From: Candidatus Woesearchaeota archaeon
GTDB taxonomy: Archaea; Nanobdellota; Nanobdellia; Woesearchaeales; GW2011-AR9
Assembly (NCBI GenBank): GCA_018696595.1
Contig: JABHQW010000003.1
Coordinates: 1-64,000, forward strand
Reading direction: 5' to 3'
Length of the DNA stretch: 64,000 nucleotides
Below, piece after piece: positions 1,061 through 1,379 of this stretch (positions are counted from its first letter, which is position 1; each line of letters opens with the position of its first letter). A model generated the notes under the pieces. That model searched no databases. It was not told the DNA's origin and saw only the letters and a program-made list of their open reading frames with translations. Position numbers and translations under genes: made by a program.

Positions 1061-1118
1061 TCATTTTACTCTAAACAACACAAAACTATAAAAAGAAACT
1101 TCTCATTTTACCATAAGT

Positions 1119-1287
1119 GGACCTGTGGCCCAGCCTGGATATCTGAAAAGACCAGAAAAGGCGATTCCCTCCTATTTAAAAGCAGAGCTTTTTAATCCGA
1201 CAAAAGCTTCGCATTAGTAGTAAGGAATAGATCGGGGGTTCGAAGCAGTTCTTTCAAAGAAGAATTACGAAAGTCCTCCCAGGTCCG
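1119..1287 (+). tRNA. tRNA-Arg(CCT) containing three introns (1141-1157, 1175-1222, 1245-1273)
   Basis: Spliced sequence GGACCTG TG GCCCAGCCTGGATAAGGC G ATTCC CTCCTAA GGAAT AGATC GGGGG TTCGAAT CCTCC CAGGTCC G folds as a full cloverleaf; BHB-like motifs at the splice sites. Confidence 0.9.
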
Positions 1288-1379
1288 CATTTTCAAATGA
1301 CAGTCTCAAGATCCAATGAAGAATCCTGGAGTAATTCCATTGTGGAATGATCTAAGTAGGCCGAGGATGAGTAATCTGT

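What the first reader, a model, noticed from the sequence alone, without database searches (positions are those of the whole stretch)
1119..1287. tRNA-Arg(CCT) interrupted by three introns, in the D-loop, anticodon loop and T-loop
The contiguous sequence is no normal tRNA. Removing 1141-1157 (17 nt), 1175-1222 (48 nt) and 1245-1273 (29 nt) gives a textbook cloverleaf with a TTCGAAT T-loop. Intron 3 sits in an ideal BHB: outer helix GGGGG/CCTCC (the T-stem), central helix TTCG/CGAA, bulges AA^G and AG^T. Intron 1 has central helix CTGG/CCAG, bulges AT^A and AA^A, and inner TCT-GAAA-AGA. Intron 2 is at canonical 37/38, with a central helix carrying one C-U mismatch. Multi-intron tRNAs are known mainly from Thermoproteales; three in one tRNA is rare, and I would not expect it in an AT-rich DPANN-like genome. 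The 17-nt intron is very short.
Basis: partly seen in the sequence, partly recalled or inferred. Interest (0 to 1): 0.85.

Follow-up and report, generated by a model that had tools for sequence, protein, structure and literature searches.

The report
Triple-intron arginine tRNA in Woesearchaeota-type archaeon
A transfer-RNA gene of a tiny archaeon is cut into four pieces by three removable inserts, and the insert in its T-loop belongs to a class that has spread through many tRNA genes of this archaeal order, hiding them from standard tRNA finders.

Summary
Removing 1141-1157, 1175-1222 and 1245-1273 from 1119-1287 leaves a 75-nt tRNA-Arg(CCT). ARAGORN and Rfam miss the unspliced gene. Two same-genus genomes carry the same tRNA with introns at the same three positions but different intron sequence and length. 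Two further genera (G004, G041) also have three introns; others have one or two. Helices at the splice sites covary. So it is a real, conserved multi-intron tRNA, not a pseudogene or chance fold.

It is no isolated oddity. Named relatives are labelled Woesearchaeota/Nanoarchaeota. In this family 44 of 49 genomes show an excess of the T-loop (59/60) intron motif. In the window's own genome at least 12 tRNA genes carry such an intron, and four unrelated tRNAs share near-identical 41-42-nt copies, as expected of transposing introns. The near-universal T-loop TTCRAA pairs with the intron end YGAA, so almost any tRNA can host one. The genome has RtcB and one splicing-endonuclease gene (no second subunit found, no CSL-size loop).

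Three-intron tRNAs are known in Thermoproteales, red algae and probably Asgards, so this is a new lineage for a known kind. A 17-nt intron is ordinary. Splicing itself was not tested.

The parts
1086..1095 (+). Candidate archaeal TATA box (ctataaaaag) upstream of the tRNA
   Evidence: Sequence; the same AAAACTATAAAAA stretch precedes the orthologous tRNA in L019, L020 and L042. Function inferred.
1119..1140 (+). Exon 1: acceptor 5' strand, D-stem 5' strand, most of the D-loop
   Evidence: Mature tRNA; conserved in G001, G002, G004, G005, G013
1141..1157 (+). Intron 1 (17 nt) in the D-loop. Central helix CTGG 1135-1138 / CCAG 1152-1155, bulges AT^A and AA^A, inner helix TCT 1142-1144 / AGA 1149-1151. 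No contiguous outer helix, i.e. a relaxed HBh'-like motif
   Evidence: inner helix TCT/AGA here is TCA/TGA in G001, G002, G004, G005 (compensatory change)
1158..1174 (+). Exon 2: D-stem 3' strand, anticodon stem 5' strand, anticodon CCT, A37
1175..1222 (+). Intron 2 (48 nt) at canonical 37/38. Central helix CTCC 1169-1172 / GTAG 1217-1220 with one C-U mismatch, outer helix = 5-bp anticodon stem
   Evidence: 3' strand is GTAG, GAAG, GGAG or GGTG in relatives (3 or 4 of 4 pairs); intron length 14-65 nt
1223..1244 (+). Exon 3: A38, anticodon stem 3' strand, variable loop, T-stem 5' strand, T-loop TTCGAA
1245..1273 (+). Intron 3 (29 nt) in the T-loop at 59/60. Strict BHB: outer helix = T-stem GGGGG/CCTCC, central helix TTCG 1239-1242 / CGAA 1268-1271, bulges AA^G and AG^T
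   Evidence: TTCG/CGAA here, TTCA/TGAA in G001, G002, G014, G047; over 47 validated T-loop introns A-T 29, G-C 12, G-T 2, A-C 1
1274..1287 (+). Exon 4: T60, T-stem 3' strand, acceptor 3' strand, discriminator G73
1305..1371 (+). Conserved small-RNA element right after the tRNA, probably a box C/D sRNA: terminal stem CUCA/UGAG and AUCC/GGAU around box C-like AUGAAGA and box D-like CCGA (CUGA in relatives)
   Evidence: Conserved after the same tRNA in L019, L020, L040, L045; no Rfam match. Identity inferred.

Best explanation
Window 1119-1287 is a working tRNA-Arg(CCT) gene whose transcript carries three bulge-helix-bulge type introns. The transcript folds so that exon and intron pair on either side of each splice site. 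The splicing endonuclease EndA cuts inside the two 3-nt bulges of each motif and RtcB joins the exons to give a standard 75-nt tRNA that reads AGG. The T-loop intron belongs to a class that has proliferated in Woesearchaeales-type genomes: its 3' end (YGAA) pairs with the near-universal T-loop sequence TTCR and the T-stem supplies the outer helix, so almost any tRNA can host such an intron at 59/60. Near-identical copies in unrelated tRNAs indicate copying from tRNA to tRNA. Shown: positions, conservation, covariation, presence of EndA and RtcB genes, near-identical copies. Inferred: transcription, cleavage, ligation, order of removal, and the route by which copies move.
For: Mature cloverleaf and anticodon; no shuffle out of 200 scores as high. 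Same three intron positions with different intron contents in G001 and G002, and in other genera G004 and G041; subsets in G005, G013, G017 (D + anticodon), G047 (anticodon + T), G014 (T only), G009 (anticodon only), while the exons stay tRNA-like. Compensatory changes: TCT/AGA to TCA/TGA (intron 1), TTCG/CGAA to TTCA/TGAA (intron 3); over 47 validated T-loop introns the pair with R57 is A-T 29, G-C 12, G-T 2, A-C 1 (Fisher p 5e-8). No second tRNA-Arg(CCT) was found in the 97%-complete genome. AGG occurs 75 times in 48 long window ORFs. EndA and RtcB are present. T-loop intron motif: family 195 matches against 50 for the reversed pattern, 44 of 49 genomes above control; no excess in other orders of the class. 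The T-loop introns checked sit in complete tRNAs (T-stem 5/5, acceptor 7/7). In the window's genome four introns in tRNA-Arg(TCT), Ser(TGA), Gln(TTG) and a probable Arg(TCG) are 86-95% identical although the three mature tRNAs resolved are 52-59% identical.
Against: No transcript data. Intron 1 lacks a contiguous outer helix and intron 2 has a mismatch in its central helix. Published work says only two-gene (alpha-beta)2 and epsilon2 endonucleases remove relaxed motifs efficiently (PMC6379350), and only one EndA gene was found here.
Confidence: 0.92

Rival explanations
1. A decaying tRNA pseudogene or a chance fold: sequence with tRNA-like ends but no working product.
For: Standard tRNA finders do not see it; no expression evidence exists.
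Against: All four exons are preserved in related species while introns diverge in length and sequence; covariation at the splice helices; no shuffle reproduces the score; no other tRNA-Arg(CCT) found in the genome.
Confidence: 0.02
2. The introns are real but the endonuclease is a two-gene (alpha-beta)2 enzyme whose second subunit is too divergent or lies in an assembly gap, so the enzymology is the usual broad-specificity kind.
For: The closest solved sequence is the alpha subunit of Nanoarchaeum equitans, which pairs with a separate beta subunit. The genome is 97% complete, not closed.
Against: One EndA gene in each of 46 of 49 genomes of the family (two matches in a 47th, G034, that look like one gene read in two pieces; none in two), including all 25 good-quality ones. 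The same query protein detects N. equitans beta at E 4e-13, so a comparable subunit should be seen.
Confidence: 0.2
3. Similarity among T-loop introns comes from gene conversion between tRNA loci or from convergent constraint, not from transposition of the intron.
For: All sit at the same position, and their ends (YGAAAG) are forced by the pairing with TTCR.
Against: The similarity covers the whole 41-42 nt while the flanking mature tRNAs are only 52-59% identical, so conversion tracts would have to stop at the splice sites. The same intron type occurs in at least Gln, Arg, Ser and other tRNAs of several genera.
Confidence: 0.2
4. Self-splicing (group I or II) introns or a split (trans-spliced) tRNA.
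For: Group I introns have been reported in archaea including Woesearchaeota records (PMC6125680).
Against: Introns of 17-48 nt are far too short for ribozymes; no Rfam match; all exons lie in order on one strand within 169 nt.
Confidence: 0.01

Closest known systems
Triple-intron tRNAs of Thermoproteales, e.g. tRNA-Glu(UUC) of Pyrobaculum calidifontis and tRNA-Pro(UGG) of P. islandicum (PMC4390854)
   Same: Three BHB introns in one contiguous archaeal tRNA gene; similar introns shared between different tRNAs (intron transposition, described in PMC4033280)
   Different: Host lineage is DPANN (Woesearchaeota-type) instead of Thermoproteales; endonuclease is a single-gene enzyme without a CSL-size loop, where those have (alpha-beta)2 with CSL
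Cyanidioschyzon merolae tRNA-Ile(UAU) with introns in D-, anticodon and T-arm (PMC9602550)
   Same: Same layout of three introns in D, anticodon and T arms with BHB motifs
   Different: A eukaryote; exact positions 12/13, 37/38 and 53/54 instead of D-loop, 37/38 and 59/60
Atabeyarchaeia and Freyarchaeia (Asgard) tRNAs, 92-95% with introns, over half with several (PMC11291895)
   Same: Intron-rich tRNA set with many non-canonical positions outside Thermoproteales
   Different: Different phylum; the passages read do not describe near-identical T-loop intron copies
Nanoarchaeum equitans split tRNAs and (alpha-beta)2 EndA
   Same: Nearest EndA with a solved structure; same broad archaeal group
   Different: Those tRNAs are trans-spliced halves; here all exons are in one gene, and only one EndA gene was found

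Membership tests
Archaeal BHB tRNA introns | Removal leaves a standard tRNA | tested here: met
Archaeal BHB tRNA introns | 4-bp central helix between two 3-nt bulges at the splice sites | tested here: met
   4/4, 3/4 and 4/4 pairs for introns 1-3; intron 2 has one C-U mismatch
Archaeal BHB tRNA introns | Flanking (outer) helix of the strict motif hBHBh' | tested here: inconclusive
   5-bp outer helix for introns 2 and 3, none contiguous for intron 1
Archaeal BHB tRNA introns | Covariation of the helices | tested here: met
Archaeal BHB tRNA introns | EndA and RtcB genes in the host | tested here: met
Archaeal BHB tRNA introns | Splicing observed | not testable with these tools
   No RNA data
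Transposing tRNA introns (Thermoproteales type) | Near-identical introns in different tRNAs of one genome | tested here: met
   Four tRNAs, introns 86-95% identical; the three resolved mature tRNAs 52-59% identical. The window's own intron 3 is not one of these four copies
Transposing tRNA introns (Thermoproteales type) | Observed movement | not testable with these tools
   Only presence/absence between relatives, e.g. T-loop intron in G004 but not in G005 of one genus
Broad-specificity EndA, (alpha-beta)2 or epsilon2 | Second subunit gene or fused extra units | tested here: not met
   One EndA gene (open frames mostly 195-275 aa) in 46 of 49 genomes; window host ORF 207 aa with one N and one C domain
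Broad-specificity EndA, (alpha-beta)2 or epsilon2 | CSL (15-18 aa) or ASL (11 aa) loop with conserved Lys near the active site | tested here: inconclusive
   By alignment only: 8 residues (SLTETGKV) between FG and ELSL, against 6-7 in M. jannaschii and 8 in N. equitans alpha; a Lys is conserved there in nearly all family members aligned; loop sizes from PMC12397907
Group I / group II self-splicing introns | Ribozyme core | tested here: not met
   No Rfam match; introns 17, 29 and 48 nt
Split tRNA | Exons on separate transcripts | tested here: not met
   All exons in order on one strand within 1119-1287

The most novel reading that the evidence does not exclude
Woesearchaeales-type archaea have undergone their own invasion of tRNA genes by mobile T-loop introns, which use the universal TTCRAA as docking site, and they splice strict and relaxed motifs alike with a single-gene homotetrameric EndA that lacks the CSL/ASL loop. 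This would contradict the present rule that relaxed motifs and intron-rich tRNA sets need (alpha-beta)2 or epsilon2 enzymes with those loops.
Probability: 0.5. Interest if true: 0.7.

Novelty: new member of a known kind. Interest (0 to 1): 0.55.

Why it matters
Standard searches (ARAGORN, Rfam) report no tRNA at this locus and only about 13 full-length tRNAs in a 97%-complete genome, while at least 12 tRNA genes carry T-loop introns that defeat or weaken those searches. Apparent loss of tRNAs in DPANN genomes may thus be partly an artefact, which bears on genome completeness scores and on ideas of reduced, host-dependent translation. The system also gives a clean test of the rule linking endonuclease architecture to intron richness, and a simple pairing rule (TTCR with YGAA) that would explain how an intron can hop into any tRNA.

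Tried and rejected
A looser T-loop pattern was noisy (15 matches against 10 for the reversed control); the pattern with C61 and checks of T-stem and acceptor solved that. ARAGORN with introns allowed gives a wrong tRNA-Thr(agt) when only intron 2 is left in. My splice search misplaced the anticodon intron of one tRNA (L039 called AGA; reading the sequence, Ile(GAT) with a 37/38 intron fits) and of L057, where a wider search favours a triple-intron tRNA-Arg(TCG); calls for L012, L013 and L014 are also uncertain. Self-splicing and split-tRNA readings rejected (see rivals). The EndA fold job (single sequence) was not finished and is not used. Literature searches for Woesearchaeota or DPANN tRNA introns found no description of this, but only openly licensed papers are held and GtRNAdb was not available.

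Full report
CHECK OF THE OBSERVATION. The sequence at 1119-1287, after removal of 1141-1157, 1175-1222 and 1245-1273, gives a 75-nt tRNA that ARAGORN names tRNA-Arg(cct): acceptor 7/7 pairs, T-stem 5/5, anticodon stem 5/5, D-stem 3/4, T-loop TTCGAAT. Neither ARAGORN nor Rfam sees any tRNA in the 64-kb window. To ask whether an intron-removing search could produce such a tRNA by chance, I ran the same search on 100 dinucleotide shuffles of the whole 169 nt and on 100 shuffles that kept the acceptor strands and the 3' end of the gene. The best mature scores were 24 and 28, against 31 for the real sequence.

COMPARATIVE PROOF. A DNA search of the genus found the same gene in both other species held. 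Their introns sit at the same three positions but differ in sequence and length: 18/16/92 nt in G002 and 17/16/150 nt in G001, against 17/48/29 here. In the family (49 genomes) I resolved 11 tRNA-Arg(CCT) genes in all, counting the window. Three introns occur in the window, G001, G002, G004 and G041; D-loop + anticodon in G005, G013 and G017; anticodon + T-loop in G047; T-loop only in G014; anticodon only in G009. G004 and G005 belong to one genus and differ in the T-loop intron, so gain or loss is recent there. Helices covary: the inner helix of intron 1 is TCT/AGA here and TCA/TGA in four relatives, and the central helix of intron 3 is TTCG/CGAA here and TTCA/TGAA in others.

THE T-LOOP INTRON IS A CLASS. 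Other low-scoring tRNA hits of the same genome turned out to be tRNAs interrupted in the T-loop. The pattern GTTCRAA...YGAAAGTC gives 195 matches in the family against 50 for the reversed pattern, with 44 of 49 genomes above control; 374 against 231 in other families of the order; and 48 against 98, no excess, in other orders of the class. Checked matches are complete tRNAs with 5/5 T-stem and 7/7 acceptor pairs. Over 47 such genes the base facing R57 follows it: A-T 29, G-C 12, G-T 2, A-C 1 (Fisher p 5e-8). In the window's genome I count at least 12 tRNA genes with a T-loop intron: Ile(TAT), Ile(GAT), Tyr(GTA), Leu(TAG), Gln(TTG), Thr(GGT), Trp(CCA), Ser(TGA), Ser(GGA), Arg(TCT), Arg(CCT) and a probable Arg(TCG), the last also with three introns. 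Ile(GAT) is my own reading, since the search misplaced that anticodon intron. Introns in Arg(TCT), Ser(TGA), Gln(TTG) and the probable Arg(TCG) are 86-95% identical over 41-42 nt, although the three mature tRNAs resolved share only 52-59%. An exact-pattern scan of GTDB genomes found the same intron type in six records titled Candidatus Woesearchaeota or Nanoarchaeota archaeon. One of them, JABJOX010000050 (SI075_bin52), carries the same 51-nt string as G001, which suggests that the window's genus is Woesearchaeota. The window's own record is not named by the tools.

MECHANISM. By established archaeal tRNA biology (PMC4090602, PMC6379350), EndA cuts in the two bulges and RtcB ligates. Both genes are present: EndA at G000 C7, ORF of 207 aa with Pfam N and C domains, and RtcB at C6. 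Intron 3 is a strict motif (5-bp T-stem, 4-bp central helix, 3-nt bulges). Intron 2 is at 37/38 with the anticodon stem as outer helix and one mismatch. Intron 1 has central and inner helices but no contiguous outer helix, a relaxed motif. In C. merolae, D- and T-introns leave before the anticodon intron (PMC9602550); a similar order here is possible but untested. Why the T-loop is a favoured site follows from the sequence: TTCRAA is near-universal in tRNAs, so an intron ending in YGAA finds its partner in almost any tRNA and the T-stem supplies the outer helix. This is inference supported by the copies and the covariation.

THE ENDONUCLEASE PUZZLE. Reviews state that efficient removal of relaxed motifs needs (alpha-beta)2 or epsilon2 enzymes and link intron-rich tRNA sets to CSL/ASL loops (PMC6379350, PMC12397907). 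Here 46 of 49 family genomes show exactly one EndA match, one (G034) shows two matches that look like one gene read in two pieces, and two show none. Nearest solved sequences are N. equitans alpha and M. jannaschii alpha4. The loop where CSL/ASL would sit is 8 residues, the same as in N. equitans alpha and 1-2 longer than in M. jannaschii, with a Lys conserved in nearly all members aligned. By gene count the enzyme is alpha4-like; whether it is broad in specificity is open.

COMPARISON AND NOVELTY. Three introns per tRNA are known in Pyrobaculum (PMC4390854), in red algae with the same D/anticodon/T layout (PMC9602550), and several per tRNA in Asgard archaea (PMC11291895). Transposing tRNA introns are described for Thermoproteales (PMC4033280). 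So the kind is known. What I did not find described, in the papers available here, is its occurrence across Woesearchaeota-type DPANN genomes with a family of T-loop introns and a single-gene endonuclease.

LIMITS. No RNA evidence. The reversed-pattern control does not match every feature of the real pattern. Several anticodon-intron placements from my script are approximate.

Noticed in passing
window 1305-1371 (+): Conserved element after tRNA-Arg(CCT), also in L019, L020, L040 and L045: stem CUCA/UGAG + AUCC/GGAU around AUGA(A/U)GA and CUGA (CCGA in the window). Looks like a box C/D sRNA, perhaps co-transcribed with the tRNA; no Rfam match.
   Followed up: partly
L085, L089, L091, L092, L087 near position 1500 (T-loop introns of other genera): T-loop introns of 50-80 nt share conserved internal motifs across genera: GGCGAGTTGGGCGGG..CCCACCGCGA, TAAGG..CCTTATCAACC, AAAATCCAATTGGTT..AAAACCTGTCTCGAAAG. 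They look like structured RNAs; no Rfam match in the loci scanned. Unexplained.
   Followed up: partly
L020 and L019 (T-loop introns of 150 and 92 nt): The two introns share flanks and the block AGCGAGGTGCGGGATGCGCAACTAACGTTGCTTACCCCCACGC, but G001 carries an extra hairpin-rich insert; 150 nt exceeds the published archaeal maximum of 129 nt.
   Followed up: no
L001 1-300 and ~850-1120 (G000 contig C5): A tRNA read as Ile(TAT) with a 27-nt anticodon intron and an 80-nt T-loop intron lies close to Gly(GCC), Tyr(GTA, 54 + 18 nt introns) and Lys(TTT): a cluster of mostly interrupted tRNAs.
   Followed up: partly
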